A stretch of 60,000 nucleotides of DNA from Bolinopsis microptera (taxonomy: Eukaryota; Ctenophora; Tentaculata; Lobata; Bolinopsidae), in NCBI RefSeq assembly GCF_026151205.1, contig NC_087083.1:5684460-5744459 (forward strand), read 5' to 3'. The notes beneath the pieces are model-generated. The model saw only the letters and a program-made list of their open reading frames with translations. It did not search any database and had not been told where the DNA came from. The translations under genes and the position numbers were made by a program. Shown here in pieces: positions 5,517-51,714 of this stretch (positions are counted from its first letter, which is position 1; each line of letters starts with the position of its first letter).

Positions 5517-8379
5517 ATGTCACACATGAAGGGGAGAGGTTGTAGTAATTCGGAGTTCGAGGACTCGTCTGAAGCCAGTTCTGACGATCACGGTATTTGG
5601 TTGATTATGATATAACAAATATACCCACACATTTGTTTGCAGATACAATCGACAGACATAAACATACGTGCTAGTTTTCAATTTGTGTCTGATATCTTGA
5701 TATAATCTAAACGCATGATATATTTCAGTTGAGGTGGCACATATCTTCACGGAACCTATCCAGACAACTAAAATCGACAAACTACTTTTTCACGATTTTT
5801 ACGATTGTTTCGACCAGTCCCTAAAACTGAAATACCAGCCGACGATCATGAACGTTACAGACGAAGAAATAAAAGTTGAAGTCGATGAAATGATTTCGGA
5901 TGTTGTAGCAGCATTAGCAGCACTTGAAGTCGAAAAACTAGCAATAGAAGCAGATATAACAGCAATCGAAGCAGATATGACAGCATTTGAATATGATTTA
6001 ACATCTGAGGAAGAGTTTTCAGAACAGGAAGTTGAATATACTTCTTTTAGTTTCAGTGATCGTTCATCAAAACTCATTGAAGAGAAATCGACAGCTGAAG
6101 AAAACGGTATGACCGCCTTTGAAGATTTTTTACAACAGACAAGGCAGTTTTTTGAAGAGGCTTTCCAAGAGATGATGGTGATTCAAGAAATGCAAACATT
6201 TGCTGCTGAACTTCCAGATTCTGAAGAGTTTTTAGAACTGGCGAGAGTGTTTTTTCAAGAGGCTCACGAAGAGATGAAAATGTTTTCTGAAATCGATGAA
6301 ATTCCAGATTCTGACGAATTTTTGGATCAGGCGAGGAAGTTTTTCCTAGAGGCTCATCTAGAACTGATAATAGTGGACACATCAGGTGATGAAAGATCAT
6401 CTGTCCAGACTGAAACACCTGATATTGAAATGGAAACACGAGCTATCGAATTCGAAACACCAAGCGTTGAAATTGAAACACCAAATGTTGAAATCAAAAC
6501 GCCAGATGTCGGAATCGAAACACCAGATTTTGAAATCGAAGCACTAGATTTTGAAATTGAAGCACCAGATTTTGAAATCGAAGCACCAGATTTTGAAATC
6601 GAAACACCGGATTTTGAAATTGAAACACCAGCTGAACAGATTGAAACGCCAGATGTTGAAATTGAAACACCAGATGTTGAAATCGAAGAACCAGATTTTG
6701 AAATCGAACGCGAAGCACCAGATTTTGAAATCGAAACACCGGATTTTGAAATTGAAACACCAGCTGAACAGATTGAAACGCCAGATATTGAAATTGAAAC
6801 ACCAGATGTTGAAATCGAAGCACCAGATTTTGAAATCGAAGTACCAGATTTTGAAATCGAAACACAAAATGTTGAAATCAAAACGCCAGATGTCGGAATC
6901 GAAACACCAAATGTTGAAATCGAAGCACCAGATTTTGAAATCGGAGCACCAGATTTTGAAATCGAAACACCAGCTGAACAGATTGAAACGCCAAATGTTG
7001 AAATCGAAACACAAAATGTTGAAATCAAAACGCCAGATGTCGGAATCGAAACACCAGATGTTGAAATCGAAGCACCAGATTTTGAAATCGGAGCACCAGA
7101 TTCTGAAATCGAAACACCAGCTGAACAGATTGAAACGCCAAATGTTGAAATCGAAACACAAAATGTTGAAATCAAAACGCCAGATGCAGTCGGAATCGAA
7201 ACACCAGAAGTTAAAATCGAAGCACCAGATTTTGAAATCGAAGTACCAGATTTTGAAATCGAAACACAAAATATTGAACTCAAAACGCCAGATGTCGGAA
7301 TCGAAACACCAGATGTTGAAATCGAAGCACCAGATTTTGAAATCGAAAGACCGGATTTTGAAATTGAAACAGCAGCTGAACAGATTGAAACGCCAAATGT
7401 TAAAATCGACACACCAGATGTCGGAATAGAAACTCCAAATGTTGAAATCGAAACATCGGATGTTGAAATCGGAAAACCAGCAATTGACTTTGACAGACAA
7501 TCCGCTGTGATTTCACTTATTTCACTTGAGAATGAAGCAGCAAATAAAGAGAAAACAGCAAATAAATGGCAAAAGGTTCGCGCCACCTCAAAATTCCAGG
7601 TGACCAAGTTGAAACGCCAGGTCCTGAAAGCAGTCCAAGTCAAGTCATCAGCTGTAGTATGGGCAGAGGGTCCGGGCTTGATGAATTGCTTCGTGGGTGA
7701 CGAGGGCTATTTCCAAATCATAACCAGAGATGCGGGACACGGTACACTGAGTGTTCGAGTGAAGATACCCAACGCCAAACCTCGTATAGGTCAGTGGGAG
7801 GGAGTGAAACGGACCATTTCTTGTAGATACAACCCAGTAGTAGCTGGAAAGTACATCATTAAAATCAAGTGGGAGGAGAAACATATAATAGGCAGTCCAT
7901 TTATAATACAAGTCAGACATCGTCCAGAAATTCAAATCGAAACAGCTGTTAAAGTCGAAACACCAGCAATTGAACTGAAATTGCCAACTGTTGTAATTGA
8001 AAAACCAGCTGACCTGGTTAAAACATCAGCTGTTAAATTCGAATCACCATTTGTTGCAGTTGAAGCATCGGTTGTCCAAATCGAAGAACCAGCAATTCAA
8101 ATCGAAGAACCAGCAATTGAAGTCGAAGAACCAGCAATTGAAATCGAAGAACCAGCAATTGAAATCGAAGAACCAGCAATTGAAGTCGAAGAACCAGCAA
8201 TTGAAGTCGAAGAACCAGAAATTAAAATCGAAGCACCCGCAAGTGAATTTGAAACACCCGATCATATCCAATCACCGGCTTTGGAAATAGATACACCAGC
8301 AAATGATGCAGTAAGGACCTTTTTATTGCTGATTTGGCAAGATTCGTGGGCTAGGATCAGTAATTGCACGATTTTGTAG
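5517..8379 (+). CDS. Gene A: heptad-repeat, filamin-domain protein with CaaX tail
   Basis: Two coding exons, 5517-5592 and 5729-8379, joined in phase 1 across a 136-bp GT-AG intron, give 908 residues. Order: a Ser/Asp-rich N-terminus; a coiled-coil stretch with LAIEADITAIEADMTAFE; three amphipathic motifs of the form FLxxxRxFFxEAxxEM (about residues 155-245); heptads of the type DVEIETP (about 256-606); a basic linker (VTKLKRQVLKA); one filamin/ABP280 repeat (about 668-758, with WAEGPGL, GTLSVRV, AGKYIIKIKW and GSPF); EEPAIEI heptads (about 763-873); a short hydrophobic patch; and a terminal CTIL. CTIL fits a CaaX box, with Leu favouring geranylgeranylation. No signal peptide is seen, so a cytosolic membrane-tethered scaffold is inferred. 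The 3' flank resembles that of gene G. The exact function is unknown. The large second exon is secure; the first exon rests on splice consensus, phase and likeness to copies G, H and I. Confidence 0.75.
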
Positions 8380-22740: not shown

Positions 22741-22950
22741 TTGAAACATTAAATGTTGAAATCAATTCGAATTGATTTCAGATTTGAAACAGCAGCTGTC
22801 GAAATCGAGCTTCCATATCTAAAACTCGAAAGACCGGCTTCCGAGGCGGAAACAACTGCTTTGGAAATGGACACGCCAGAAGCAAAGGGAGCGGGAACTT
22901 CGTTCGCGCTTATTTTGCAAACGTCATGGTCTGGATGCAATATTTTGTGA
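22741..22950 (+). pseudogene. Gene B relict: C-terminal end of a family member with CaaX tail
   Basis: Only heptad-type sequence and the tail remain. VETLNVEIN runs into a stop (TGA about 22774). After a frame change, FETAAVEIELP continues through KGAGTSFALIL to a terminal CNIL. The hydrophobic patch plus Cys-aliphatic-Leu end matches gene A (CTIL) and gene G (CRIL). The N-terminal exons and the filamin repeat are missing, apparently deleted between upstream module 2 and the tail. Two LINEs occupy its upstream module. Confidence 0.65.
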
Positions 22951-28893: not shown

Positions 28894-29433
28894 TGGATTG
28901 TTTTGTGGGCGACGAGGGTCATTTCAAAGTCTTTAACAGAGCTGCTGGAAACGGTACACTAACCATGCGAGTGAAGGGACCCAAAGGCAAACCACGTAAA
29001 GGTAAGTGGAAGGGAGCGAAAGAGACTATTGATTGTAGACACAAACCACAAGTAGCTGGGAAGTACATTATAAAAATCAAGTGGGAGAACGAGCATATCA
29101 AGGGCAGTCCATTCAAGATACAAGTTAGAAACCGTCAAGTAATCGAAATCGAAACACCAGCTGATAAAATCCGAAGTACCAGCAATTGAATTCGAATCAC
29201 CAACTGTTGAAATCAAGGCACCGACTATCGAATTGGAAACATCAGTTATGGAAAGATCAGCTGTTGAAGTTGAAGCACCGACTTTTGAATCGGAAACACC
29301 AGCTACTGAACCTGAAGATCCTGAATTCGAAACACCACCTTCTTCGGAAGTAGGGACACCAGCTGCGGAAGAGGGATCGGGGTCCTTTTTCGGCTTCATT
29401 CGGCAAGTGATGACCCGCTGGTTTTACTTTTAG
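28815..29433 (+). pseudogene. Out-of-frame end of gene C: second filamin repeat and aromatic tail
   Basis: Shifted by one base relative to the upstream frame, DAIWADGPGLMDCFVGDEGH opens a second filamin repeat (28870-29130; TIDCRHKPQVAGKYIIKIKW, HIKGSPFKIQV). It runs to a stop at about 29187-29189. Near 29171 an extra C restores the original frame, which continues through heptads to GSGSFFGFIRQVMTRWFYF and a stop at 29431-29433. Two opposite single-base changes thus break an otherwise well-preserved end. They could be real mutations or consensus errors. Confidence 0.65.
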
Positions 29434-34254: not shown

Positions 34255-34616
34255 TATTGACACTGCAGTTGTGGTGGTAAAATGTCAACTTGTTCTCCAA
34301 ATAATCACTTCAAAAAATGTCGTCGTTTTTTAAAACGATTATCCACTTGAAACGATTCCGTTTGTTTTCATTTGATCCCCGATATCCAAGCAGTCTGTAA
34401 ATCGAGTTTTAACACTCAAGCCCACTCTGAAAAAAAAATTGCAATTTAATTTTGAGGCTGCAATAAGTAAAAACAAAATGAAACGTTCTTAGTGGGCTGA
34501 GAGTGTAAAAAATGTATTTTTAAGCTCAATCCTTGCACCAGAGAGATGCAATGTTGGCCCATTAGGTGGTCTTAGCTTTCTTATTCAGGTATTAAGGTAA
34601 CCTTAATGGGACCAGG

Positions 34617-35517: not shown

Positions 35518-38500
35518 ATGAAACGACACAAAACAGCTAGAACCTTGCTTTTTCACGAGTTTTACGGCCAGTCCCTAAAACTGAAAAACCAGCTGACGAT
35601 CATGGATGCTAAAACAGCAGCACTTGATGATGAAAAACTCGCAATTGAAGCCAATATAGCAGAAATCGAAGCCGCTATAGCAGCCATCGAAGCTGATTCA
35701 GCAGAAATGAGTTGGGATATGAGTATGGAGGCGTCTCTGACATCGCCAGACGTCACTGAGGAACGACAAACCCTGACAGGTATGAGATAAGGTCTATAAA
35801 GTAAATACTGATTTAAAAGAGTTAGAATTCTTGTTAGAATTCTAATTAAGAAATTAATTACATAATAAATGTGCAGGCCAGAATTTGCTTCCAATTAATG
35901 CAAAATATGATTTTAGCACATAAAACATTTCAGCTGAAGCAGCAGATGTCTTTATGGTACGACTCAAAGCAGCTAAAGTCAAAAAACGACTTCGTCCGAA
36001 TTTTAAATGCCAGCAAACGATTATGAATGATAAAGTTGAGACCCTAAAAGTTGAAGTTGATGAAATTATGCTAGATGGAGCACCTGCAGCATGTGAAGTT
36101 GAAAACAAATCGTCAGCTAATGACTTTTTACAACAGGCGAGGAATTTTTTTCAAGATGCTTTTGAAGAGCTGAAGTCGATTGAAAAAGAAACACCAGCAG
36201 TCGAAATTGAATCCCCAGATGTCGAATTGGAAGAACTAGCTGATGAAGGGTTTCTGGACCAAGTGAGGTCGGTTTTTCAAGTTGCTTTTAAAGAACTGAT
36301 ATTAGACAAAAAGAAAACACCAGCAATCGGAATTGAAACAAGAGCAATCGGAATTGCAGCTAACGAATTGGAAACACCAGCAGCTAACGGATTGGAAATA
36401 CCAGCATTTGAAATTGAAACAAGAGCAGTCGGAATTGAAACACCTGCAGCTAACGGATTGGAAACACCAGCATTTGAAATTGAAACAAGCGCAGTCGGAA
36501 TTGAAATACCTGCAGCTAACGGATTGGAAACACCAGCATTTGAAATTGAAACAAGAGCAGTCGGAATTGAAATACCTGTAGCTAACGGATTGGAAACACC
36601 AGCATTTGAAATTGAAACAAGAGCAGTCGGAATTGAAATACCTGCAGCTAACGGATTGGAAACACCAGCATTTGGAATTGAAACAAGAGCAGTCGGAATT
36701 GAAATACCTGCAGCTAACGGATTGGAAACATCACCCATCCAAGTGGAAACTTCAACTGTTCAAATCGAAACTATTTCTGTCGAAATCGAAGCACGAGCTG
36801 TTGAATTGGAAACACTAACTATGGAAATTACAGCTCTAGCTGTCGAATTCGAAAAATCGGTTATTGAAGCAAACGATCCAGCTGTTGAAATAGAGGCACC
36901 ATTAGCCAAAATCGAAACTCTGGTTGTTGAAATCGAAACTCAAGATTTTGAATTCAACAAGCTTTTAGAGACGCCGGTTCTAGAAAAAGAAACACAAGCT
37001 GTTGAAATCAAATCACTAGCAGACCAAGTTGAAATGCAAATAGTAGACGTCAAACTTCCAAATTTTGAGGTCGAAACACAAGCAATCGAATTTGAAAATC
37101 AGCCATCAGTAATCGAAACTTTAGCTGTGGAAATAAACACATCAGTTGATGAAATCAAACCACCGGCAGTCGAATTGGAAACACCAGCAGTTGAAATCAA
37201 AACTCCACCGATCGAATTCAATAAACCAACTATCGAATTCGAAAGACCACTTATCGAAGTGGAAACAATAGCTGTGGAAGTGAAATCCTCAACAGTTAAA
37301 ATTGAGGCACCGACTGTCAAATTAGAATCACCAGTCAGCGAAATCAAGACACCAGCTGTGGAAAGCGAGTCACCAGCTGTCGATACAAAAACTCTTTCTG
37401 TAGGAATCGAAGAACCAACTGTCCAAATAATGGCACCAGCTGTTGAAATCGAAATTGCAGTTGAACAGGTAGAAACAAAAGCTATCGAAATTGAAAAATT
37501 AGCTGTGGAAGTTAAAAGACCACCTAACGAAATAAAAACACCAATAATTGTTGAATTCGAAAAGCCAGCCATCGAATTGGAAGCACCAGCTGTTGAAATC
37601 AAAGCACCAGCTGTCGAATTGGAAACACTAGCTGTTGAAATCAAAGCACCAGCTGTCGAATTGGAAATGCCAGCTGTTGAAATCAAAGCACCAGCTGTCG
37701 AATTGGATACACCAGCTGTTGAAATCAAAACACCAGCTGTCGAATTGGAAATGTCAGCTGTTGAACTCAAAGCACCAGCTGTCGAATTGGAAATGCCAGC
37801 TGTTGAAATCAAAGCACCAGCTGTCGAATTGGAAACACCAGCTGCAGTTAAAATCAAAGCACCAGCTGTCGAATTGGAAATGCCAGCTGTTGAACTCAAA
37901 GCACCAGCTGTCGAATTGGAAACACCAGCTGCAGTTGAAATCAAAGCACCAGCTGTCGAATTGGAAATGCCAGCTGTTGAACTCAAAGCACCAGCTGTCG
38001 AATTGGAAATGGCAGCTGTTGAAATCAAAGCACCAATTGTCGAATTGGAAATGCCAGCTGTTGAAATCAAAGCACCAGCTGTTGAACTTGAAACACCAGC
38101 CGTAAAAGTGGAGTCACCAGCTCCTGAAATCAGAACAACAGCCTTCAAACAAAAGACTTCTGCACGATTCTTAAAGTTGTTTCGACCAGCCGCCAAGGTT
38201 GAAATGCCAGCTAATGAACATGAGAAACCATTTCAAATCGAAGGACCAGCTGACCAGGTTGAAACGCCAGCCATCGAAATCGGAATTCCAGATGTTGAAC
38301 TGAAAACACCGGCTGTCGAAGTGGAACCTTCAACTCCCGAAATCAAATCAACAGCTGCCAAAAGAAAATCATTTGCACGAATTTTACGATTGTTTCGACC
38401 AGCTGCCAAAATTGAAATTTTAGCTGACGAAGATGAAACATCTGCTGCTGAAATTAAAGCAACAGCAGTTGAATTTGAATCACCAACTGTTGACTCTGAA

Positions 38501-39175
38501 GCACCAGTCCAAATAGAAACATCTGCTAAAGAAATTTCAGTGGATCAGGTTAAAACGCCAAATTTCGAAACCGAGAAACCGGTTGTAGAACTCAATGAAC
38601 CTGCCGTCGAAGTGGAGCCTTCAGCTCCTGAAATCAACAATACACCTGACAAAAGAAAGGATTTGTCGAGATTTTTAAAATTTTATCGACCTGCCGCAAC
38701 AGTTGAAATTGTAGCTAACGAACATGAAACACCTGTCCAAATTGATACTCCAGATGTTGAACTTGAAACACCAGCCGTCGAATTGGAGTCACCAGCTTCC
38801 GAAATCAAAACAACAGTTGTTAAAAGAAAAACTTCGTCGCGATTTTTACGATTGTTCCGACCTACCACCAAAGTTGAAATTGTAGCTGACGAACCAGTTG
38901 TTGAAGTGGAAACAATAACTGCCGGAGTAGAACTGGAAGCATCAACTGTCAAATTAGTTGATCAAGTAACAACACCAGCTGATGAAATGAAAGCATCGAA
39001 TGTTGAAATGTTGAATGTTGAAAATGTTGATAACGAAACATCAGCAATTGAATTAAAAACATCACATGTCGAAGAAGACAGAATGGCTTTGGAAATAGAG
39101 AGAATAGGGAATTTTTTCACGCTACTATCACTACTACTTTTATTAGTTGTAGTAGTTTATGGTTTGAGATTTTAA
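35518..39175 (+). CDS. Gene E: heptad-repeat protein with tail anchor, no filamin repeat
   Basis: Coding exons 35518-35779 (exon body from 35498) and 35934-39175 join in phase 1; 1167 residues from ATG 35518. No first exon like those of A, G and H was found, so the start is uncertain. The two exons begin alike (AEYADVFMKR, AEAADVFMVR), an exon duplication. Order: coiled coil (LAIEANIAEIEAAIAAIEAD); two FLxQxRxxFQxAFxEL helices; 26-residue units of the ANGLETPAFEIETRAVGIE type (36316-36735); 14-residue units APAVELETPAVEIK (37560-38090); and four basic/aromatic motifs such as KRKTSSRFLRLFRP (about nt 38148, 38360, 38653, 38823). It ends in a hydrophobic helix (NFFTLLSLLLLLVVVVYG) four residues from the terminus, the layout of a tail-anchored membrane protein. 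The filamin repeat is absent. Confidence 0.75.
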
Positions 39176-39202
39176 TCCTGGGTCAATTGCACGATATTGT
39201 AA
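39176..39202 (+). other. Relict in-frame CaaX tail after the gene E stop
   Basis: Directly after the TAA, in the same frame, the next codons read SWVNCTIL followed by TAA. This matches the NCTIL end of gene A at both DNA and protein level. It shows that E once ended in a CaaX box. Stop-codon readthrough would append it, but TAA in this context is not a known leaky signal. Confidence 0.75.
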
Positions 39203-39242
39203 ATTTTGTGAATATATGTGAAATGTTATCAATATTTTTTTA

Positions 39243-39248
39243 AATAAA
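39243..39248 (+). promoter_or_regulatory. Candidate poly(A) signal of gene E
   Basis: AATAAA 68 bases after the stop codon, the nearest canonical hexamer downstream. Confidence 0.5.
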
Positions 39249-39419
39249 TGGCGAAAGTTACATTTTTTAATTGGTATGTGTCAGAAATAAAAAATATTAA
39301 TGGCAAATCAATTTTTCTTATACTTTTTTTTATAATTTTTTATTAAAATTCGGTAAAAATTCCTTGACAGCTTTTTAAAATTCGTACAGTTCGGCACCTT
39401 TTAAAAGTTCGTACAGTGC

Positions 39420-39740
39420 GTACTGACCAACTATGCTCTTGAGGATCAGTCCCCTCATCAACAGTTAAAATTTCTTGATACTTTGATAATTTTTTCGATG
39501 TTGTAAAATTTATATGGGACGATTGCTGAGTAAAACATCATTTTCTTGAAAAAAACACTCAAAGCATTTTTTTTATGAGCTACGAAAATTCGAAAGTCAC
39601 TATACCAGCTGTTATACATTGTACAATAAATATTCTAATAGCTAATATTACCAGCTGTTATACATTGTACAATCAATATTCTAATAGCTTATAATATTAC
39701 CGCAGATCGGTTGGTTTCTAACTGCCCCTTAATCGTTTCA
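39420..39740 (+). repeat. Upstream module, copy 5 (right part only) with a 45-bp duplication
   Basis: CTTGAGGATCAGTCCCCTCA, TATGGGACGATTGCTGAGTA and TTTTCTTGAAAAAAACACTC match the right half of other modules; the core is missing. At 39605-39700 a segment starting ACCAGCTGTTATACATTGTA occurs twice in tandem. It precedes relict gene F. Confidence 0.6.
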
Positions 39741-39834
39741 CTTTGTGATTGACACATCATGTCTAATAAAATTAGACATGCGATGTGCGTACTCCTTGGT
39801 ACTCTTACAAAATAATCTATTTAATTTTTCTTAC

Positions 39835-40975
39835 AAGAATACAACTGTAAAAAGTTATAAACCATCGAAACTGATGGTGACAGTTCGTGGATAAATAAGG
39901 CTGGTTTTTCTATCGGCGCTGCTACTTAAAATAATCTCGACTCAGTTAACAACCCGGTTCCATTCCACACAAAAACTTTCACCAGCCAGAACCCTTCACA
40001 ACTGACCTCGTCAAGCCACATTCTTGAACCCATCTGCAGCAGAGCAATTCCATCGCGATTCCAACCTATTTCGACCTGTGGAACACTGTGTAATTCATAA
40101 ATCACTATATCATTCATTTCCTCCTCAGTCCTATGGACACTACGTACTAGTCTAATTCTGCTTAACAATTAAAGCCAACAATTTTAGGGCTCAAACAACT
40201 TATCCACAAATTGTTTATTCCAAAGCCTGAGTCAATAGACATGAGCGAGGATTTCGTCGCGTAGAAAAGGCGAAAATAGAGGAGTCTCCGTTATCCCCAA
40301 ACCTTAACCACGCCTTTAAGAATCATGAACCAGAAACCCCGGCAGGTATGAGGTCCATCTAGGTATTTTAAATCGGTCGATGGTAAGTGTTTAATTGATC
40401 ATTTTGTGGCAGTAGAGACAGGAGCCGCAAGTCGATTGGTTATTAAGCATTACTATTGGATACGTGTTGGGCGCTCAGAATTAAATTGACTATAATAGTA
40501 TAATGCGGCCGTTTCGATTGGGCGAGTTCATGCTTTTGCGCCGTTTAAACTTTTGCATCGTTTATAATACTTTTGCAATTCAACTGCGATAATGAAGTTC
40601 CGGCCGTAGGCACGGGTTACACTAATAAAGTAAATAATGATTATAAAGTAAATAATGAAATGTAAATAATGAAAAAGTCAATAATGAGAAAGTAAATAAT
40701 GATAGAGTAAATAATGATTAGAGAATGTTATACAAAATGTGCTTGTTTTCAATTTGTGCCTAATATGATATGAACACATGATATATTTCAGATGTTGACC
40801 TTGAAACACCAACCGTCGAATTCGAGCCACCAGCTTCCGAAACCATGAAAAAACCTTTCAAAAAGAAGACTTTGTCCCCATTTTTTCAATTATTTCGACC
40901 ATGACCAGTCGCAGAAGTTGAAATGCCAGCTGAAGGACATGAAACCACACATGAATGGAATGTGTATTTCAATTG
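39835..40975 (+). pseudogene. Gene F relict
   Basis: Three family exons can be traced. The exon-1 region (about 39835-39900) has lost its ATG. The exon-2 region (about 40215-40346, ATGAGCGAGGATTTC ... GAAACCCCGGCAG/GTATGA) has an in-frame TAG. The exon-3 start (from 40792 after ATATTTCAG) encodes DVDLETPTVEFEPP, then KKKTLSPFFQLFRP, and stops at TGA 40902-40904, with PVAEVEMPAEGHET still readable after it. It resembles gene G most closely. Confidence 0.65.
40629..40725 (+). repeat. GTAAATAATGA short tandem repeat
   Basis: About six imperfect units of AAGTAAATAATGA inside the last intron of relict gene F. Confidence 0.7.
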
Positions 40976-41079
40976 GCATGTGGTGAACTGTGACATGGAA
41001 GTTGCAATACGAGTACAGCGTCGTATGCCCTTCAATCCCTAATTCCTTTATCGATGTAATGAGATATTCATACAATAGT

Positions 41080-41480
41080 CATAGTTTCAAAATGTAATAG
41101 CTTCGCTTTCCTTCTTTGTTTGAAAAGCTAAATCGATACTCCCTGACCTATGAGTGAACTCTGAACAGCTGTAGATTTACTAGCAACCGTCATTGTTCTG
41201 CTGCTCTTGTTGAATAATTGCAGATAAGAGGAGACTTGAGGAATTGAAAGAGAACAGGCTTACACAAATAGTTGTCCTCAAAACTTACACTGTGGACAAA
41301 CAATGATCAGTCAAATTCTTGAAATACCTACACTAGTTGTCAACTTTAAGAACAATAGACTTTCATAAGCCGTACCCTATGGAAGTTTACTCCTTTTAAC
41401 GCTAGTTAGCATTTCTTGATAATTTTTTCGATGTTGTAAACTTTATGTGGGACGATTTCAGCGAAAAAGAACATATTATC
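41080..41480 (+). repeat. Upstream module, copy 6
   Basis: AAAATGTAATAGCTTCGCTT, TGTTTGAAAAGCTAAATCGA, TGTTGAATAATTGCAGATAA (core about 41219), CTTACACAAATAGTTGTCCT and AACTTTATGTGGGACGATTT. The donor-like GTATGT of other copies is lost (AATAGTTGTCC). It precedes gene G and is closest to copy 8. Confidence 0.7.
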
Positions 41481-41643
41481 GCCTGTTTTATTGGCTCCTG
41501 GCTCTCCCATAACTATTTTTCACTATACTTTGTGATTGAGACTTATACTCATAGAAATAAAACTAATCTAGGTTCTTCTTGGTACTCTTGTAAAATGTTT
41601 GATTTTATTTCACTCAGAAGAATGGAATTATAAAAAGTCACAA

Positions 41644-44315
41644 ATGGGGCAAACGTACAGTTATTATACGTCGGCGGTGGTAGAGGACGTCTCTGAATCC
41701 GGTACTGATGATGACGGTTCGTTTTTTCTTCAAAGAAATAATAACCCCACTTAAAATAATTTCACATATTTATTTTGTTAAAACGTTCGCTTTATTCTGA
41801 GTATTCTACAAAAAAGAAGATCTTACTACTCAGTATCTGATGGTTAAAATTTTACGGTTAAAAGTCTAAACTGTGTCTACAATGTAGAATCTACATCAGT
41901 TATGGGTCTCTTTTGGACTCTTCAAGTTCACGCCATGATTCAGCTCGACCAAAGCAATAAGCGGTTTACAACTAGCTGTGACTGCTAATCGCATCTTCCT
42001 TCATGGATTCCCTTTCCAATTGATTGCAAAATTCTTTGTTGGATCAGTGGTACTTCCAGTTCACAACATTCTTTGTTGTACCGGTGGAACTTCCAGTCCA
42101 TGTTTATTGTATCCTTACCATTCTACCAGCTCTATGTGCTCTTACCATTCTACCAGCTCTATGTGCTCTAACCATTCTACCAGCTCTATGTGCTCTTACC
42201 ATTCTACCAGCTCTATGTGCCCTTACCATTCTACCAGCTCTATGTGCTCTTACCATTCTACCAGCTCTATGTGCTCTTACCATTCTACCAGCTCTATGTG
42301 CTCTTACCATTCTACCAGCTCTATGTGCTCTTACCATTCTACCAGCTCTATGTGCTCTTACCATTCTACCAGCTCTATGTGCTCTTACCATTCTACCAGC
42401 TCTATGTGCTCTTACCATTCTACCAGCTCTATGTGCTCTTACCATTCTACCAGCTCTATGTGCTCTTTTATAATGACTCAGTCAGCGTGTCAGGTTTTAA
42501 AGCTATACAACAGTATGTAGTAGTGACGATACAAGGAATTCTGAATTTCCTCCTGAGCTGTTCAAGCTTTTGCTTTCCTGACACTTAATATCATATGAGG
42601 TCTTGTTACTATGGTGACATTACCATATAAGGTAATGTTAAACGCATGTCCCTCTCAGTTGCTGTTATCCAGGCTCCAAGGTAAAAGAAGACTGTCACGG
42701 TTTCCAAATGGTTTTCAGTACTATTGGCAAAACTTATCTTTTCTGCTGGCTATTCAGAGTCAACGTCAGAGTCGTTCACGGCTATAGCCAAAGTAAAACT
42801 GTAGTCAATGACAATGATGAGCAAGGAAGGGGCCAAAGTGTTTCCTTGTAGGACTCCAACCAGGATGATCATTCCAGTGCATCAGCATATACCTTTTGTG
42901 AGCGTAACCATAATGCCAATGCTTTAAATAACTCCATAAACAGAACTCTGTGTACACTATCAACGGCACTATTAACACCCTCGTAGCCTTTGGAAGCTCT
43001 TCCTTTATGTTGAGTGGAGTTTCAATGGTGCTGATGAGATGTCAGTGACTCGAGGTGGATTGTCAAGTGTCATTATTTAATTCCATGACGATTGTAACAT
43101 ATTACGATCTCTCATCTCTGTTACACTGTAACAGATTCGTAGAATTACATTTTATTCATTCCCTCCCCAGTTATATGTTGACTACTTGTATAATTCTGCT
43201 TGAAAATCTAAGCCAAACATTTTATTTAGGACACAAAAAACTTATTATCCTAAATATCGTCCATTTCAGAGTCTGAGTCTGAAGTTGAAGAAGTCATCGT
43301 GATGCCATCGCTGGATCTTGATCAAACCCCGGCAGGTACGAGATAAAGTATATAATGATAAAAGAGGTACCTCTGAAATATAATTCTGGTTACAATATTG
43401 ATTCAGCGAAAATGTTATACAAAATGTGCTTGTTTTCAAGAATAAAACACATGATATATTTCAGATAATGAACTCGAAACACCAACCGTCGAAGTCGAGC
43501 CAACAACCGTCGAAGTCGAGCCACCAACCGTCGAGCCACCAGCTATCAAGAAAAAATCTCTCAAAAAGAAGACTTCGTCACCATTTTTTCGAGTATTTCG
43601 ACCAGTCGCCAAAGTTGAAACACCAGCTGAAGAACATGAAACATCTAATAGTGAAGTGAAAGACGAAACAGCAGCAGTAGAAGAAAATAAAACACAAGCT
43701 TTGGAAGAGACTGACACACCTAATGGTGGAGTTGAAGATGAAACAACAGCAGAAGTAGCAGATAATGAAGAGCAACCTCTGGAAGAGGTCACGACAAAGG
43801 CTAAAGTCGAGACACTAATAGTTGAAGTCGAAGACCTGACCGTTGATGTTGGGGCAGAAGCAGCGACAAATGAAGAAGAAAAAGAAGAAGCGATATGGGC
43901 AAAGGGTCCGGGCTTGATGGACTGTTTTGTCGGTGATCTGGGTGACTTCCAAGTCTTCACCAAAGATGATGGACTCGGTTCATTAAGTGTGAACGTAAAG
44001 GGACCCAAACCCAAATCTAAATTAAATAAGTGGAAGGGAACGAAACGGCCGGTCAGTTGTAGATACAACCCAAAAGTAGCCGGAAAGTACATTATCACAA
44101 TCAAATGGGGCAAAAATTGTAAAAACCACGTCAAAGGAAGTCCATTCACAGTACAAGTCACAGATCGTCCAGCTGAAGAAATCGAAACACCAGCAATAGA
44201 ATTGGAATCGCCAGCGGTTGAAACGTCAAGTGTTGATCTTAGCCTCGAATCAGATGAGGAAGAATCAGATGAGGAAGTAGCAGTGGAGGAAGGAACATAT
44301 TGCAGGATTTTGTGA
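41644..44315 (+). CDS. Gene G: compact filamin-domain protein with CaaX tail
   Basis: Three exons, 41644-41716, 43270-43335 and 43465-44315, all joined in phase 1 with GT-AG borders, give 329 residues. This is the smallest complete member. Order: a short N-terminus ending SGTDDD; an acidic exon-2 peptide; VEVEPPTVEPP; the basic/aromatic motif KKKTSSPFFRVFRP; an acidic low-complexity spacer in place of the long heptads; a filamin repeat (about residues 189-284; IWAKGPGLMDCFVGDLGDF, GSLSVNVKGP, AGKYIITIKW, HVKGSPFTVQV); an acidic tail; and a terminal CRIL, a CaaX box with Leu. Intron 1 is 1553 bp and holds a 27-bp minisatellite and an antisense LINE remnant. It is probably cytosolic and prenylated. 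The 3' flank resembles that of gene A. Confidence 0.8.
42107..42466 (+). repeat. 27-bp minisatellite, about 13 units
   Basis: Unit CTTACCATTCTACCAGCTCT followed by ATGTGCT, with rare single-base variants (TCTAACC, TGCCCTTACC). It lies in intron 1 of gene G. The 27-bp period is divisible by three, so frames in all directions stay open; these are not genes. Confidence 0.95.
42610..43050 (-). pseudogene. Decayed LINE reverse-transcriptase fragment (antisense, in intron of gene G)
   Basis: On the minus strand GVLQGNTLAPFLLIIVIDY (about 42855-42800) is the conserved QG motif region of a LINE reverse transcriptase. FYLGAWITATERDM (about 42690-42645) is the region after the thumb. Between them the catalytic YADD block is deleted and a stop is present. 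It is a short, old remnant of a third LINE family. Confidence 0.6.
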
Positions 44316-44397
44316 ACATTTAAAAAATGATTAATGTGACATGTATAGCATAGATTAAAAAGTTTAATTAGATTGATAGTTAAAAATATATGAGAAT

Positions 44398-44590
44398 TAG
44401 TATGGCTTGGACATCAAATGTTGGAATTGAAACATCAGCGATCAAATTCGAAACACCAAATGTTAAAATGAAAACAAAAAATGTTGAAATCTAGAGCTGT
44501 TGAAATCGAAAATCAGTTATTGAAGTCGAAAATCAACATTGGAAGTTGAAGCAACTGCTGTTGAATTCGAATCACCTATGTTATACCGGA
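44398..44590 (+). pseudogene. Relict heptad-coding fragment downstream of gene G
   Basis: WTSNVGIETSAIKFETPNVK continues to a TAG at 44502-44504. After it, AVEIE-, VIEVE- and EVEATAVEFESP-like pieces appear in changing frames. It is a leftover of a duplicated family repeat. Confidence 0.6.
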
Positions 44591-45152
44591 TTTGTAACTT
44601 ATATAGTGTGGACACAATGTTTGTAATCAGTGAAAAATTTAAAGTTATATTGATTAACAATAACATAATGGTTTTATTTTGTAATGTGTAGTATACTTAA
44701 TTCGTATGCAGATGTCTAGTCGTAACGGAACGCAGTCTGGTTAGAAATAGATAAAAACGGAGAGAAAAGTGCCTACTAAAACCAATCGATCTAGATCACT
44801 AAATTTCAACAAAGAAAAGTGAAAAATGAGTACAGTGAGTTCTTGCCAATCAGTAAATATGATCTTTAGCTTCACAAAATAAGTGGTGACTGTGATTCTG
44901 AAGTTTGATTAGTCAATAGTTTATAGGTTTATGCTGATTGGTTAATGACTGTTACGTGTCAAAGAGTTGCTTCGCCCCTCCTCTGTCCCTTTGTGTAAGA
45001 ATGTTCTCCTTCAATTCCTCAAGTCTCTTCTAATATCTGCAAATAATCAACTAGGGGATGTAAAAACAATGGCGGTTAATGTGCATTCGTGGTCCACACT
45101 CCAGACAGTATCAAAACTAAGCTTCTCAAACAAAGGGGGACGACAAAACGGA

Positions 45153-46010
45153 GGGACAGAGGGACAGAGGGACAGAGGGACAGAGGGACAGAGGGACAGA
45201 GGGACAGAGGGACAGAGGGACAAGGGACAGAGGGACAGAGGGACAGAGGGACAGAGGGACAGAGGGAAAGAGGGACAGAGGGACAGAGGGACAGAGGGAC
45301 AGAGGGACAGAGGGACAGAGGGACAGATGGACAGAGGAACAGAGGGACAGAGGGACAGAGGGACAGAGGGACAGAGGGACAGAGGGACAGAGGGACAGAG
45401 GGACAGAGGGACAGAGGGACAGAGGGACAGAGGGACAGAGGGACAGAGGGACAGAGGGACAGAGGGACAGAGGGACAGAGGGACAGAGGGACAGAGGGAC
45501 AGAGGGACAGAGGGACAGAGGGACAGAGGGACAGAGGGACAGAGGGACAGAGGGACAGAGGGACAGAGGGACAGAGGGACAGAGGGACAGAGGGACAGAG
45601 GGACAGAGGGACAGAGGGACAGAGGGACAGAGGGACAGAGGGACAGAGGGACAGAGGGACAGAGGGACAGAGGGACAGAGGGACAGAGGGAAAGAGGGAC
45701 AGAGGGACAGAGGGACAGAGGGACAGAGGGACAGAGGGACAGAGGGACAGATGGACAGAGGAACAGAGGGACAGAGGGACAGAGGGACAGAGGGACAGAG
45801 GGACAGAGGGACAGAGGGACAGAGGGACAGAGGGACAGAGGGACAGAGGGACAGAGGGACAGAGGGACAGAGGGAAAGAGGGACAGAGGGACAGATGGAC
45901 AGAGGGACAGAGGAACAGAGGGACAGAGGGACAGAGGGACAGAGGGACAGAGGGACAGAGGGACAGAGGGACAGAGGGACAGAGGGACAGAGGGACAGAG
46001 GGACAGAGGG
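45153..46010 (+). repeat. (GGGACAGA)n satellite, about 107 units with variants
   Basis: The 8-bp unit is punctuated by variant units (GGGAAAGA, GATGGACA, GAGGAACA). These recur as a higher-order block near 45264-45345, 45691-45770 and 45873-45915. One CAAGGGACAG slip occurs near 45222. It is open in several frames only because the unit lacks stops. Confidence 0.95.
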
Positions 46011-46235
46011 AAATTAAAAACCTTTCGGCCTTCTAATCTGGATCCCACAGAGATGAGATCACGTCACCCAACAGTTACGATTAATTGATGACCTGATCAA
46101 TTGATTTCAGTTGATTTATCAAAAAATGGGCTTGAGTTAATGTTATGTGTAGATTTTACATGATAACTTAGCAAATATCATCTGTAAATGCCACTGCTTC
46201 GTTGACAGTATCAAAACTGAGCTTCTCAAACAAAG

Positions 46236-47607
46236 GGGGACAAGGGACAGAGGGACAGATGGACAGATGGACAGAGGGACAGAGGGACAGAGGGACAGAG
46301 GGACAGAGGGACAGAGGGACAGAGGGACAGAGGGACAGAGGGACAGAGGGACAGAGGGACAGAGGGACAGAGGGACAGAGGGACAGAGGGACAGAGGGAC
46401 AGAGGGACAGAGGGACAGAGGGACAGAGGGACAGAGGGACAGAGGGACAGAGGGACAGAGGGACAGAGGGACAGAGGGACAGAGGGACAGAGGGACAGAG
46501 GGACAGAGGGACAGAGGGACAGAGGGACAGAGGGACAGAGGGACAGAGGGACAGAGGGACAGAGGGACAGAGGGACAGAGGGACAGAGGGACAGAGGGAC
46601 AGAGGGACAGAGGGACAGAGGGACAGAGGGACAGAGGGACAGAGGGACAGAGGGACAGAGGGACAGAGGGACAGAGGGACAGAGGGACAGAGGGACAGAG
46701 GGACAGAGGGACAGAGGGACAGAGGGACAGAGGGACAGAGGGACAGAGGGACAGAGGGACAGAGGGACAGAGGGACAGAGGGACAGAGGGACAGAGGGAC
46801 AGAGGGACAGAGGGACAGAGGGACAGAGGGACAGAGGGACAGAGGGACAGAGGGACAGAGGGACAGAGGGACAGAGGGACAGAGGGACAGAGGGACAGAG
46901 GGACAGAGGGACAGAGGGACAGAGGGACAGAGGGACAGAGGGACAGAGGGACAGAGGGACAGAGGGACAGAGGGACAGAGGGACAGAGGGACAGAGGGAC
47001 AGAGGGACAGAGGGACAGAGGGACAGAGGGACAGAGGGACAGAGGGACAGAGGGACAGAGGGACAGAGGGACAGAGGGACAGAGGGACAGAGGGACAGAG
47101 GGACAGAGGGACAGAGGGACAGAGGGACAGAGGGACAGAGGGACAGAGGGACAGAGGGACAGAGGGACAGAGGGACAGAGGGACAGAGGGACAGAGGGAC
47201 AGAGGGACAGAGGGACAGAGGGACAGAGGGACAGAGGGACAGAGGGACAGAGGGACAGAGGGACAGAGGGACAGAGGGACAGAGGGACAGAGGGACAGAG
47301 GGACAGAGGGACAGAGGGACAGAGGGACAGAGGGACAGAGGGACAGAGGGACAGAGGGACAGAGGGACAGAGGGACAGAGGGACAGAGGGACAGAGGGAC
47401 AGAGGGACAGAGGGACAGAGGGACAGAGGGACAGAGGGACAGAGGGACAGAGGGACAGAGGGACAGAGGGACAGAGGGACAGAGGGACAGAGGGACAGAG
47501 GGACAGAGGGACAGAGGGACAGAGGGACAGAGGGACAGAGGGACAGAGGGACAGAGGGACAGAGGGACAGAGGGACAGAGGGACAGAGGGACAGAGGGAC
47601 AGAGGGA
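46236..47607 (+). repeat. (GGGACAGA)n satellite, about 170 nearly perfect units
   Basis: After a short variant start (CAAGGGACAG, GATGGACAGATGGACAG) the 8-bp unit repeats without visible variation for about 1.3 kb. It is more homogeneous than its sister array, so recently expanded or contracted. Length in the assembly should be regarded as approximate. Confidence 0.95.
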
Positions 47608-47796
47608 AATTAAAAACCTTTCGGCCTTCTAATCTGGATCCCACAGAGATGAGATCACGTCACCCAACAGTTACGATTAATTGATGACCTGATCAATTGA
47701 TTTCAGTTGATTTATCAAAAAATGGGCTTGAGTTAATGTTATGTGTAGATTTTACATGATAACTTAGCAAATATCATCTGTAAATGCCACTGCTTT

Positions 47797-48160
47797 GTTG
47801 CCCCCTTCGTTTGAGAAGGTCAGTTTTGATACTATGTGGAGTGTGGACCATGAATTGCCTTAGTTGATTATTTGCAGCAAAGAGGAGACTTGAGGAATTG
47901 AAGGAGAACATTCTTACACAAATGGATGTGCTTAAAACTTACAGCTAATGGACAAACAATGATCTGTCAAATTCTTGAAATATCTACAGTTGTCAACTTT
48001 AAGAACAATCGACTTCCATGATAGACCGTATCTTCTAGCTTTAGTTAGTATTTCTTGATAATGTTTTTGATGTTGTAAATTCTATTGCAGATTGAGACAT
48101 GATTTTCTTGAAAATCATTTGAGCAATTATTTTAATGAACTGCGAAAATTTAGCAAAATT
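47797..48160 (+). repeat. Upstream module, copy 7
   Basis: TTTGTTGCCCCCTTCGTTTG, GATTATTTGCAGCAAAGAGG (core about 47878), CTTACACAAATGGATGTGCT, AACTTTAAGAACAATCGACT and GATTTTCTTGAAAATCATTT. The left half doubles as the right arm of the satellite block. It precedes gene H. Confidence 0.7.
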
Positions 48161-48373
48161 GGGCGAACCACAGTATGATCGATATGCTGCTGTTTCCGGT
48201 TCGGCATTTCGCATCCTTGACCGGTGGTCTATTCGTTACCCCTTAATAATTTCAATTTATGATTGACACTTATACAGAGTTATAGAGTTAGAACTAGTGA
48301 ACGTGCTTTTAGGTATTCCTCAACACATTTGATTTTATTTCCCTTAGAAGAATGAAACTGTAAAAAGTCCTAC

Positions 48374-50974
48374 ATGACTTTAACTGACGTTTCTGAAGCC
48401 GGTACTGGTGATGACGGTTGGTTTTTGTTTAAAAAAAATTTGCAAGGGATTACACGAACGTAAAATAGATTCACATATTTGCTTCAAATATTTGCTTTCA
48501 GGTTCAATCTGCAAATTCAGTAGTATGATTCTGCTTGACAAATGAAACCCAACATATAGGCACAAATAATTCTGAACTGAAATATCGCCCATTTCAGAGC
48601 CCAAGTCAGTGGAAATGAGTGCGGATATGGAAGTAGAAGTGAGCTTGGAGGCGTCTCTGCCATCAGTGGAACTTAACCACACCTTTGAGAGTCATGAACC
48701 AGAAACCCTGACAGGTATGAGGTCTATAAGTATAAAGTAAATACTGATATAAAACAGGTTACTCTGAGTTATAATTCTTGTTAGGATTCTTGTTAGATAC
48801 ATACATGTACTTGTGCTAGTTTTCAATTTGCGCCTGATATGTTTAAACCCTGGTATATTTCAGTTGAAGTGGCAGATGTCTCCCGGACACCATTCCAGAC
48901 AACTGAAGAGAATTCTGCTGAAGCAATCGAGGGGGTAAATGTGAAAATGTCGGACTCTGCAGCCACAGACATTAACAGGGAAAACGAAGGTTTCAAAGGA
49001 GATTCAATCCGAAGCATTTCTTCTGAGGAAGAGTTTTTACGTGCTGAGCAAAGAATATCCAATGAAATAGAACTATCAAGTCTATATAGCATGGATTTTG
49101 AAACATCATCAGTCCAGTATCAAGACGAAACATCAGATGCACCAGAAAATGAAGTACAAGCTCCTGAAGACGTATCTTCAAAAGTCAAAGTCGAGACACT
49201 TGAAACCGAAATTCCAGTTGACCAGGTTGAAACACTAAATGCAGAAATCAAAACACCAACTGTTAAATTCGAAACACCAGCCGTCGAAATGGAGCCAGCA
49301 AAAACAGCTGTCAAAAGGAAGACTTCATTTCGATTTTTACAATTGTTTCGATCTGCTCCCAAACGTGAAACGCCTGAATCGATATGGGCAGAGGGACCGG
49401 GCTTGGTGGACTGTTTTGTGGGAGATAAAGGCTACTTCCAAGTCTTCACCAGAGATGCAGGACAAGGTACACTTAGTGTAAGGGTGATGGGACCTAAAGA
49501 AAACTCTCGTGTAGTTAAGTGGAAGGGAGCCAAACGGGCTGTTAGCGGCAAATTTAACCGTAAAATAGCTGGAAAGTACACGATTAAAATCAAGTGGGAG
49601 AATAGACATATCAAAGGCAGTCCATTCAAGATAAAAGCCACAAAACGTCCAGCTATTGAAATCGAAACACCAGATGTTGAAATCGAAACACCTGATGTTG
49701 AAATCGAAACACCAGCTGTCCACGTTGAAACGCCAGATGTAGAAATCGATACACCAGATGTTGAAATTGAAACGCCAGATGTTGAAATCGAAACACCAGA
49801 TGAAGAAATCGTAACACCAGATGTTGCAATCGAAACTCCAGCTGTCCAGGTTGAAATACCAAATGTTGAAATCGAAACACCAGATGTTGACATCGAAACA
49901 CCAGCTGTCCACGTTGAAACGCCAGATGTTGAAATCGAAACACCAGCTGTCTACGTTGAAATGCCAGATGTTGAAATCGATACACCAGATGTTGAAATTG
50001 AAACGCCAGATGTTGAAATCGATACACCAGATGTTGAAATCGAAACACCAGATGTTGACATCGAAACACCAGCTGTCCACGTTGAAACGCCAGATGTTGA
50101 AATCGATACACCAAATATTGAAATCGAAACACCAGATGTTGACATCGAAACACCAGCTGTCCACGTTGAAACGCCAAATGTTGAAATCGATACACCAGAT
50201 GTTGAAATCGAAACGCCAGATGTTGAAATTGAAACACCAGCTTTTGAAATCGAACCATCATATGTTGGATTCGAAACATCAGATGTTGACATCGAAACAC
50301 CAGGTGACCAGGTTGAAACACCAAATGTTGAAATCGAAACACCAGATTTTGAAATCGAAACACCAGATTTTGAAATCGAAACACCAGATGTTGTAATCAA
50401 AACATCAAATGTTAAAATCGAAACACCAGATCTTGGAATTGAAACTCCAAATGTTGAAATCGAGACGCCAGAAGTCGAAATCGAAACATCAGATATTGAA
50501 ATTGCAATATCAGATGTTGGAATTGAAACACCAGATGTTGAAATCGATACACCAGCTTTTGAAATCGAAACACCAGCTTTTGAAATCGAAACAACAGATT
50601 TTGAAATCGAAGCATCAGATGTTGAAATTGAAACATCAGACGTTGAAATTGAAACATCAGACGTTGAAATTGAAACATCAGATGTTGAAATTGAAACATC
50701 AGACGTTGAAATTGAAACACCAACAATCGAATTTGAAGCGACAACTGTCGAAACGGACACAAAGGCTTTGGAAATAAAGACAGCTGCAAAAGGAGTAGGG
50801 ATCTTATTCGTGCTTATACTATTATTACCATTAGTTGTGATATTAACAGTTGTACTCGTAATGTTTCGTGCTGATTTGGAAAAATATATGGTAATGATTG
50901 GTGGTCTTGCAGGATTCTGTGAACATTTCTTAATTGCCCCTTTTATGGGAGTTTTCATGAAAAGCATCGGTTGA
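48374..50974 (+). CDS. Gene H: filamin-domain, heptad-repeat protein with transmembrane tail
   Basis: Exons 48374-48416, 48598-48714 and 48864-50974, all phase 1 with GT-AG borders, give 756 residues. An upstream in-frame TGA supports the ATG. Order: a short N-terminus (SEAGTGDDEP); an acidic stretch with a weak EEEFLRAEQR helix; basic/aromatic motif KRKTSFRFLQLFRS; one filamin repeat (about residues 225-315; IWAEGPGLVDCFVGDKGYF, GTLSVRVMGP, AGKYTIKIKW, HIKGSPFKIKA); very regular DVEIETP/AVHVETP heptads (about 317-679); and a transmembrane helix (about 696-722, GILFVLILLLPLVVILTVVLV), with 34 further residues containing a second weakly hydrophobic stretch. The sequence coding CRIL-stop in genes G and B survives here out of frame (50908-50922), so the present C-terminus arose by frameshift. 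A cytosolic protein anchored by its C-terminus is inferred. Confidence 0.8.
50908..50922 (+). other. Out-of-frame relict CaaX tail inside gene H
   Basis: TGCAGGATTCTGTGAACATT corresponds to TGCAGGATTTTGTGAACATT at the end of gene G, where it encodes CRIL and a stop. In gene H it is read in another frame (GFCEHF), and translation continues 17 codons to 50974. Confidence 0.75.
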
Positions 50975-50981
50975 AGGTTTA

Positions 50982-50987
50982 AATAAA
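50982..50987 (+). promoter_or_regulatory. Candidate poly(A) signal of gene H
   Basis: AATAAA starting 8 bases after the stop, which is unusually close. It may reflect extension of the reading frame into former 3' UTR. Confidence 0.4.
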
Positions 50988-51714
50988 TACATAGTCGCGG
51001 TTTAATTAAAGTTTTGAAAACAAATATGAAGAATAGTATGTGTTTGATAAATGCTTATGCTATACTGGATTTGGGAACTTTTTATGGACTAGCTTGATGT
51101 TTGTGACTAGTAAAACCTGAAGATTTACTAATTTACTCTAAATTAATGAATGTGTATAGTTATAATAGTAATTTTGATAAACATAATGCGTTTATTTTTT
51201 CTTGTGTCTTTCTTAATTTTTGACAACTGTCGTCATAACACGCATTTTGGATATGAGAATACTAGCAGTCAAATCAGTTAAAGTTTACAACGGCGGCAGT
51301 ATTTGCTGTTGAAAACATAAAGTATCAAAAAATACACCGGCTACCAGGATGGAAGTGGGATCATCAGTCAAAGTATTAGCTGCTTTTTCATTCGAGGGTA
51401 CTTTTAGTACTTTAGTATTCTTTAGTACTACTAAAAATATACTTTATCGGCTTAGTTAGTCTAGCTTTTGAATTTTTGGGAATGATCAGCTCATAAATTC
51501 GGACAAACAAATTATTTTGTGATAGCAATTTTTAGTGATTTTAACGATTATCAGTCAATTTTGGCGTGGTTGTATGTTTACAACTTAGGGCCACTACCCT
51601 AAAATCCAATTTTATTAATTTATCGATTTTTTTGGATGCTGATTCGAGCATGCTAAACATAGGATTTGATTTTCATTTGATCCCTTACGTAAAATTATGT
51701 ATTTGCTTAACAGA
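50988..51714. other. Intergenic stretch after gene H
   Basis: AT-rich, including a cluster of GTACTTTTAGTACTTTAGTA-type short palindromes (about 51399-51440). No gene or element end recognised. Confidence 0.5.

What the first reader, a model, noticed from the sequence alone, without database searches (positions are those of the whole stretch)
39100..50974. Paralogues appear to have switched from a CaaX lipid anchor to a transmembrane tail
Genes A, B and G end in Cys-aliphatic-Ile-Leu (CTIL, CNIL, CRIL). Gene E ends in a hydrophobic helix, yet the eight codons immediately after its stop, in frame, read SWVNCTIL-stop. Gene H has a long hydrophobic helix, yet TGCAGGATTCTGTGA (CRIL-stop in G) survives inside it one frame over. 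The simplest reading is that the ancestor had a hydrophobic patch plus CaaX box. E then lost the box by a stop and H by a frameshift, while both hydrophobic patches grew into membrane helices. CaaX prenylation and tail anchoring are established; the switch itself is inference.
Basis: partly seen in the sequence, partly recalled or inferred. Interest (0 to 1): 0.85.

Follow-up and report, generated by a model that had tools for sequence, protein, structure and literature searches.

The report
Fossil lipid-anchor codes beside membrane tails
In a cluster of sister genes in an animal-like genome, some proteins end in a signal for attaching a fatty membrane anchor, while two sisters end in a greasy, probably membrane-spanning tail and still carry unused remains of that signal in their DNA, so a change of membrane anchor seems to have been caught not long after it happened.

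Summary
The letters are as described. A, B and G end in C-x-I-L; E reads SWVNCTIL-stop after its stop; H holds TGCAGGATTCTGTGA in another frame. These are homologous remains, not chance: E's remnant fits A's tail better than 5000 shuffles and 14521 other windows, and H's end matches A, B and G beyond 2000 shuffles each. The tail word GCTTTGGAAAT, which ignores the box, picks out A, B, E and H (and one repeat inside gene K); 4 of these 4 tails carry the box or its remains and two carry the helix, so the box is most simply ancestral.

Corrections: B is a truncated remnant; H's remains lie 41 bases beyond its helix; H has two length changes, not one. A 58-nt stretch between two TTCGTGCT copies supplies most of H's helix, and H's last 17 codons come from what is 3' flank in G and A. 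Whether E and H gained helices separately is open. Related tails C and D have neither box nor helix.

No reads, transcripts or second species were available: the tail change is well supported, a working anchor switch is inferred.

The parts
5729..8379 (+). Gene A, last exon (start inferred from a TTTCAG site): N-terminal part, (PAVEIET)-type repeats, one filamin repeat, tail FLLLIWQDSWARISN-CTIL
   Evidence: open without internal stop; acceptor-like site; Pfam PF00630 E 1.1e-13
8365..8379 (+). CaaX box CTIL and stop of A
22753..22950 (+). B: 5'-truncated remnant carrying the patch and box, ..FALILQTSWSG-CNIL-stop
   Evidence: 65 open codons; no repeat body in three forward frames of 0.87 kb upstream
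29342..29433 (+). End of gene C: tail GSGSFFGFIRQVMTRWFYF-stop, related patch but neither box nor helix; frames broken further upstream
   Evidence: (nhmmer E 3e-4)
35934..39175 (+). Gene E, last exon (start inferred from a TTTCAG site): repeats, no filamin repeat found, membrane-type C-terminal helix
   Evidence: open without internal stop, about 1080 codons; no PF00630 match
39104..39166 (+). E hydrophobic helix IGNFFTLLSLLLLLVVVVYGL
   Evidence: KD 2.46 and summed scale -1.50 over 19 residues
39176..39202 (+). Untranslated remnant SWVNCTIL-stop, in frame after E's stop
   Evidence: no AG between the stop and the Cys codon
43465..44315 (+). Gene G, last exon (start inferred): filamin repeat, acidic tail, CRIL
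44301..44315 (+). CaaX box CRIL and stop of G
48864..50974 (+). Gene H, last exon (start inferred): filamin repeat, repeats, helix, C-terminal extension
   Evidence: open without internal stop, about 702 codons; PF00630 E 1.5e-12
50801..50866 (+). H hydrophobic helix ILFVLILLLPLVVILTVVLVMF
   Evidence: KD 3.44 and summed scale -5.32 over 19 residues
50807..50864 (+). 58-nt extra stretch in H, between TTCGTGCT at 50807 and TTCGTGCT at 50865; codes FVLILLLPLVVILTVVLVM
   Evidence: absent from A and B in the alignments
50865..50907 (+). H counterpart of the LIW/LIL-x-x-x-W segment of A and B, now read in another frame
   Evidence: 2 of 5000 (A) and 6 of 5000 (B) shuffles score as high
50908..50922 (+). 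Out-of-frame remnant CRIL-stop in H
   Evidence: no AG between the upstream TGA of that frame and the Cys codon
50921..50971 (+). H C-terminal extension EHFLIAPFMGVFMKSIG, coded by sequence that is 3' flank in G and A
   Evidence: post-stop homology G-H 0 of 1000, A-H 29 of 1000 shuffles

Best explanation
A tandem family of filamin-repeat proteins with long (PAVEIET)n bodies had an ancestor whose C-terminus was a short hydrophobic patch followed by a type-I prenylation box C-x-I-L (shown by comparison). A and G keep the box; such a box would be geranylgeranylated and hold the protein on the cytosolic face of a membrane (inferred from the motif). In E and H the patch is much longer and scores as a membrane-spanning helix near the C-terminus, so these proteins would be inserted after translation as tail-anchored proteins (inferred). 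In E the box was cut off by an in-frame stop and survives untranslated. In H a 58-nt stretch between two copies of TTCGTGCT supplies most of the helix; since 58 is not a multiple of three, it also shifts the frame. A second small length change further on puts the box in yet another frame, and translation runs on through former 3' flank for 17 codons. A box behind a true membrane helix would face the lumen and be useless, so it could decay freely; that the helix came before the loss is inference.
For: The remnants are homologous to the boxes, not chance (patterns in 52, 53, 54). Tails picked by a word that ignores the box (GCTTTGGAAAT, exact, forward strand of 190 kb) are A, B, E and H, plus one repeat inside gene K; 4 of these 4 tails carry box or remnant and 2 carry a helix, and both helix forms hold a remnant. 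A, B and H share the patch. Beyond the box stop, G-H and A-G are alike (0 of 1000 shuffles each) and A-H weakly (29 of 1000), so H's extension is former flank. Of 15 repeat- or filamin-bearing forward-strand open frames (60 codons or more) in 190 kb, only E (-1.50) and H (-5.32) have a 19-residue window at or below 0; the other 13 are 7.59 or more (one of the 13 lies in a retroelement-like stretch, and B and C's own tail piece are not in that list; they score 9.33 and 10.31). Animal G-gamma subunits end in GCxIL (PMC3508898, passages). A match to the ICMT family (PF04140) is in this genome, E 3.9e-15, with one stop inside it; the family also rings in 5 of 14 control genomes, so it is weak support for a prenyl-processing route.
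Against: One genome: no reads, RNA, second individual or related species. The five boxes were found with a C-x-I-L-stop pattern, so their sameness is no independent sign of selection. C and D have a related patch but no box and no helix, and no box or helix was recognised at the ends of the array members beyond the window, so the tail is not uniform. The array is partly decayed or misassembled (B truncated; frames broken in C, D, I and one filamin repeat of M). The filamin-repeat tree is poorly resolved (3 of 15 inner branches well supported) and E has no repeat. Longer E flank: 24 of 2000 shuffles reach A's score, 557 B's, 91 G's. Beyond the box most pairs are not alike: A-B 620, A-E 76, B-E 988, B-G 852, B-H 460, E-G 256, E-H 504 of 1000. 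A single-base assembly error between helix and box would change H's ending.
Confidence: 0.7

Rival explanations
1. Decay without a switch: E and H belong to a partly dying gene array. Their boxes broke by ordinary stop and indel mutations, and the hydrophobic tails are by-products (slippage in CTA/TTA/GTA-rich DNA, reading of T-rich flank) with no role as anchors.
For: B is truncated, and C, D, I and M show broken frames. E's helix codons are largely CTA, TTA, GTA and GTT.
Against: E and H keep open last exons of about 1080 and 702 codons without internal stops, with splice-like boundaries shared with A and G. In both proteins the only strongly hydrophobic stretch sits at the C-terminus.
Confidence: 0.25
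2. Helix ancestral: the common ancestor had a membrane helix, and A, B and G lost it (for example by deletion between the TTCGTGCT copies) and gained the box.
For: The 58-nt stretch is bounded by a direct repeat, as a slippage deletion would need.
Against: E and H, the helix forms, both hold remnants of the box, which is unexpected if their lines never used it. The two helix segments are not alike beyond codon make-up (1200 of 5000).
Confidence: 0.08
3. Double tail: E or H make both helix and box in some copies, by stop readthrough in E, or because the assembled H has a wrong base count, so that helix and CRIL are really in one frame.
For: In a test copy of H one extra base between helix and box puts both in one frame. 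Frame breaks occur elsewhere in the array. If the genome is Bolinopsis microptera, it was assembled with wtdbg; pilon is named in the same section (PMC10232365, passages).
Against: A Cys just behind a membrane helix would face the lumen, away from the prenyltransferases (established topology, recalled). E's remnant follows a plain TAA. H and B align without a gap through the A-run, so no error is needed there.
Confidence: 0.1
4. The 3' ends were spread by gene conversion within the array, so box and remnants tell about copying of 3' ends and not about descent of whole genes. This is compatible with the best explanation.
For: A and G share about 90 nt of 3' flank but differ upstream of the box; C and D share theirs (score 88.0).
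Against: It explains how sequences spread, but still needs the box to have been present in E and H.
Confidence: 0.2

Closest known systems
Plant G-gamma subunits, types A, B and C (PMC3718340 and PMC3508898, passages)
   Same: Related genes differ in the C-terminal anchor: type A with CaaX box, type B without it; Arabidopsis AGG3 (type C) with a weakly predicted transmembrane helix and a putative CaaX motif.
   Different: Unrelated proteins; the helix lies near the centre of AGG3; in the passages seen no remnant of a lost box in untranslated DNA is described.
Miro GTPases (PMC8146680, passages)
   Same: Small GTPases that lack the CaaX motif found in many Ras and Rho proteins and carry a C-terminal transmembrane domain.
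   Different: Different protein; in the passages seen no trace of a lost box is described.
New C-termini made by frameshift, for example S. paradoxus Pis1 (PMC4494051, passages)
   Same: A frameshift adds C-terminal residues, in Pis1 with a predicted transmembrane helix.
   Different: Variants among strains, in an enzyme of a membrane family; no lipid anchor replaced.
Lamins that lost the CaaX motif (PMC4448529, passages)
   Same: Repeated loss of a CaaX motif, also in duplicates.
   Different: The word transmembrane does not occur in the held main text.
Filamin repeats (PF00630); AHNAK repeats (recalled, not tested)
   Same: The body holds filamin repeats and long acidic V-E-I-E-type repeats.
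   Different: No actin-binding domain among the matches for the six frames scanned; CaaX or helix tails.

Membership tests
CaaX (type-I prenylated) proteins: A, G | Cys four residues from the C-terminus, aliphatic residues, Leu at the end for geranylgeranyltransferase I | tested here: met
   CTIL and CRIL end the open frames; Ile fits, the first 'a' place (Thr, Arg) is not aliphatic; animal G-gamma consensus is GCxIL (PMC3508898, passages)
CaaX (type-I prenylated) proteins: A, G | The Cys is actually prenylated | not testable with these tools
   needs labelling or mass spectrometry
CaaX proteins: E, H | Box at the C-terminus of the protein | tested here: not met
   in E the remnant's Cys is the fifth codon after the stop; H reads that place in another frame
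Tail-anchored membrane proteins: E, H | One hydrophobic segment of about 20 residues near the C-terminus and no other | tested here: met
   best 19-residue windows E -1.50, H -5.32, both at the C-terminus (scale values recalled); H has a second, weaker stretch (KD 1.56); no dedicated predictor was available
Tail-anchored membrane proteins: E, H | Short lumenal end (up to about 30 residues, recalled) | tested here: inconclusive
   E has 2 residues after the helix as drawn, H has 35
Tail-anchored membrane proteins: E, H | No N-terminal signal peptide | tested here: inconclusive
   last-exon starts look hydrophilic; upstream exons not mapped
Tail-anchored membrane proteins: E, H | Post-translational insertion by the GET/TRC route | not testable with these tools
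   needs experiment; a search for Get3 (PF02374) in the genome did not complete
Filamin-repeat proteins | Filamin/ABP280 repeat | tested here: met
   5 of 6 window frames over the PF00630 cut-off (A, C, D, G, H); E has none
Filamins proper | N-terminal actin-binding calponin-homology domains | tested here: inconclusive
   none among matches for the six frames scanned; upstream exons not scanned

The most novel reading that the evidence does not exclude
The same array shows two independent replacements of a prenyl anchor by a protein membrane anchor, and in H a single 58-nt insertion between short direct repeats both built the membrane helix and pushed the lipid-anchor box out of frame, after which translation took in former 3' flank: a one-step anchor switch with its fossil still readable.
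Probability: 0.3. Interest if true: 0.75.

Novelty: new variant of a known kind. Interest (0 to 1): 0.55.

Why it matters
How proteins change from one membrane anchor to another is mostly inferred from old paralogues in which the intermediate has gone. Here box, remnant and helix lie in neighbouring genes at a stage where the base changes can still be aligned. This makes a question testable: does the helix come first and make the lipid box useless, or is the box lost first and the helix rescues the protein? If the species guess (a comb jelly) is right, sequenced relatives exist in which the order could be read.

Tried and rejected
Chance as the source of the remnants: rejected. Splicing that would restore the box in E or H: no AG lies between E's stop and the Cys codon, nor in H between the upstream TGA of that frame and the Cys codon. 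Polarising by a tree: 18 filamin repeats were used of the 23 matches (two halves of a split M repeat, two C9 pieces and one C8 match left out); too poorly resolved, and E has no repeat. More tails in the genome: searches with the tails of A, H and B and with H's helix DNA returned only themselves, which may reflect the tool's first look, since even the other known tails were missed; a profile model was built but is not accepted for this genome. A shared origin of the two helices: not shown. E's stop as a C-to-T change in the Gln codon CAA of A and B: possible, but one search aligns the letters another way, so not claimed. Species: 264.65 Mb, with pattern hits only on contigs C1-C13, fits Bolinopsis microptera (265 Mb, 13 chromosomes; PMC11797021, passages), but that table lists 346 scaffolds against 232 here; the GFP search was uninformative because none of its controls rang. 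That this kind of fossil is not in print rests on searches in one open-access library, of which I saw titles and starts of abstracts only. Papers: passages only of PMC8146680, PMC4448529, PMC3718340, PMC3508898, PMC4494051, PMC11797021 and PMC10232365.
Full report
What is there. The window lies at G000:C12:5684460-5744459 of a 264.65-Mb genome. A search with H's filamin repeat gives 23 matches: 20 within 121 kb of C12 in and beyond the window, 2 on C9 and 1 weak on C8 (counts of families are lower bounds in this tool). A search with E's N-terminal part gives 7 matches, all in the same array. So the genes form one tandem array. Last exons of A, C, G, H and E begin after a TTTCAG site, and those of A, E, G and H run open to the tail; splicing itself is not verified. 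The bodies are long V-E-I-E-type repeats, with a filamin repeat in 5 of the 6 window frames scanned; E has none.

The tails. A: ALEIDTPANDAVRTFLLLIWQDSWARISNCTIL. B: ALEMDTPEAKGAGTSFALILQTSWSGCNIL. E: ALEIERIGNFFTLLSLLLLLVVVVYGLRF-stop-SWVNCTIL-stop. G..SDEEESDEEVAVEEGTYCRIL. H: ALEIKTAAKGVGILFVLILLLPLVVILTVVLVMFRADLEKYMVMIGGLAGFCEHFLIAPFMGVFMKSIG. B is only a remnant of 65 open codons; no repeat body was seen in the three forward frames of the 0.87 kb upstream. C has a related patch ending RWFYF, with neither box nor helix, and broken frames; D's end is like C's but cut short by a stop after a length difference.

The remnants are real. TGCANNATNYTGTRR finds the five tails in the window (5 matches; mean 0.09, largest 1, in 100 shuffles), and TTGCANGATNYTGTRR finds A, E, G and H (0 in 100 shuffles). 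In the whole genome ATTGCANGATNYTGTRRACATTT with up to 2 mismatches gives 21 places; the 3 with at most one mismatch are A, G and H, while the reversed control pattern gives 14 places, so the 18 places with 2 mismatches mean nothing (13 of them are one identical repeated sequence); B and E are not among the 21. These patterns were drawn from the tails, so alignment tests count for more. E's 27-nt remnant against A's tail: 0 of 5000 shuffles and 0 of 14521 other windows; against G: 2 of 5000. With a longer E flank (125 nt) the shuffles reaching the score were 24 of 2000 for A, 557 for B and 91 for G. H's end (50862-51020) against A, B and G: 0 of 2000 each.

How H's tail was made. The start of H's helix aligns with B's patch (0 of 5000), and the DNA just after the helix aligns with that patch again in A (2 of 5000) and B (6 of 5000). 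Between lie 58 nt, from one TTCGTGCT at 50807 to the next at 50865, coding FVLILLLPLVVILTVVLVM. As 58 is not a multiple of three, LIWKNIW, the counterpart of B's LILQTSW, is no longer in frame. Between that W and the Cys a further length difference (16 nt against 15 in A and 6 in B and E; counted by eye) puts CRIL in a third frame. A test copy without the 58 nt and with one A fewer reads GVGILFVLIWKIYGNDWWSCRIL-stop, like A and B; the place of the small change is not fixed by the data. H then runs 17 codons into sequence that is 3' flank in G (0 of 1000) and, less clearly, in A (29 of 1000).

How E's tail was made. The helix is a run of CTA, TTA, CTT, GTA and GTT codons, in frame with the remnant behind the TAA. 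Its likeness to H's helix does not exceed codon make-up (1200 of 5000), though the tail as a whole is alike (0 of 5000). One origin or two is therefore open.

Direction. The five boxes were found by their pattern, so 'five of five' would be circular. A word from the start of the tail that ignores the box, GCTTTGGAAAT, occurs exactly 5 times on the forward strand of 190 kb: A, B, E, H and one repeat inside gene K. 4 of the 4 tails carry box or remnant; 2 carry a helix; A, B and the inferred older H have the short patch. Box with short patch is thus the simplest ancestor of these four. C and D show that the patch also exists without box. C9 carries a filamin-gene fragment split by intron-like stretches, whose end resembles that of N, the last gene of the array (by eye); I saw neither box nor helix in the 1.5 kb read there.

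Function. Only E (-1.50) and H (-5.32) of 15 forward-strand frames have a 19-residue window at or below 0 on the biological hydrophobicity scale (values recalled); the other 13 are 7.59 or more. A box of the form CxIL ends animal G-gamma subunits. So A and G probably sit on membranes by geranylgeranylation, and E and H by a C-terminal helix. These steps are inferred, as are expression and selection.

Doubts. One genome, no transcripts. Broken frames in C, D, I and M and the truncation of B show that the array is partly decaying or contains assembly errors. E's loss rests on a stop codon, H's on length changes; the 58-nt stretch is unlikely to be an error, the small one might be. Beyond the box most pairs of flanks are not alike.

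Known cases. Related genes that differ by CaaX box or membrane helix exist (plant G-gamma; Miro), as do frameshifts that add a predicted helix (Pis1). What I did not find in the listings of searches is the lost box still legible beside the gained helix.

Noticed in passing
L041 (C9:6770754-6771142, minus strand): A filamin-gene fragment whose repeat is split by intron-like stretches, while the C12 repeats are uninterrupted (one is split by a frame break); its end (..DNGSDIVAR-stop, then VYDYQTLL) resembles that of gene N (..DILLVLR-stop, then VYDNQTT). The array may stem from an intronless (retro)copy of this gene's last repeats.
   Followed up: partly
window 24319-29433 (C) and 30173-31741 (D); C12:5755853-5756116 (I); C12:5803233-5803526 (M): Repeat or filamin frames change frame inside genes, which means real decay or assembly indels.
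   Followed up: partly
window 29342-29433 and about 31741-31800: C and D tails (GSGSFFGFIRQVMTRWFYF; GSGSSSGFIRRVVNCVLYF in another frame) look like a third outcome of the same patch, without box or helix. Copies of D's end recur about 1 kb further on.
   Followed up: partly
window 40200-41000: F: remnant of another member between E and G, with a splice-donor-like CAG|GTATGAG as in E and H and a short second exon ending FQLFRP-stop.
   Followed up: no
window about 33500-34260, 42100-42470, 45090-46050, 46230-47630, 54580-55280: Long tandem repeats (for example GTEGQRDR-type and CTLHPAP-type) between the genes, open in many frames.
   Followed up: no
window 38820-38880, 43550-43610, 49300-49350: Basic-aromatic motif like KRKTSSRFLRLFRP in E, G and H (seen by eye; the strict pattern caught only E's), a possible second membrane-binding or phosphorylation site.
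   Followed up: no
window 11186-21885: Retroelement-like open frames (judged by eye, no search) between A and the truncated B; an insertion may have cut B off from its body.
   Followed up: no
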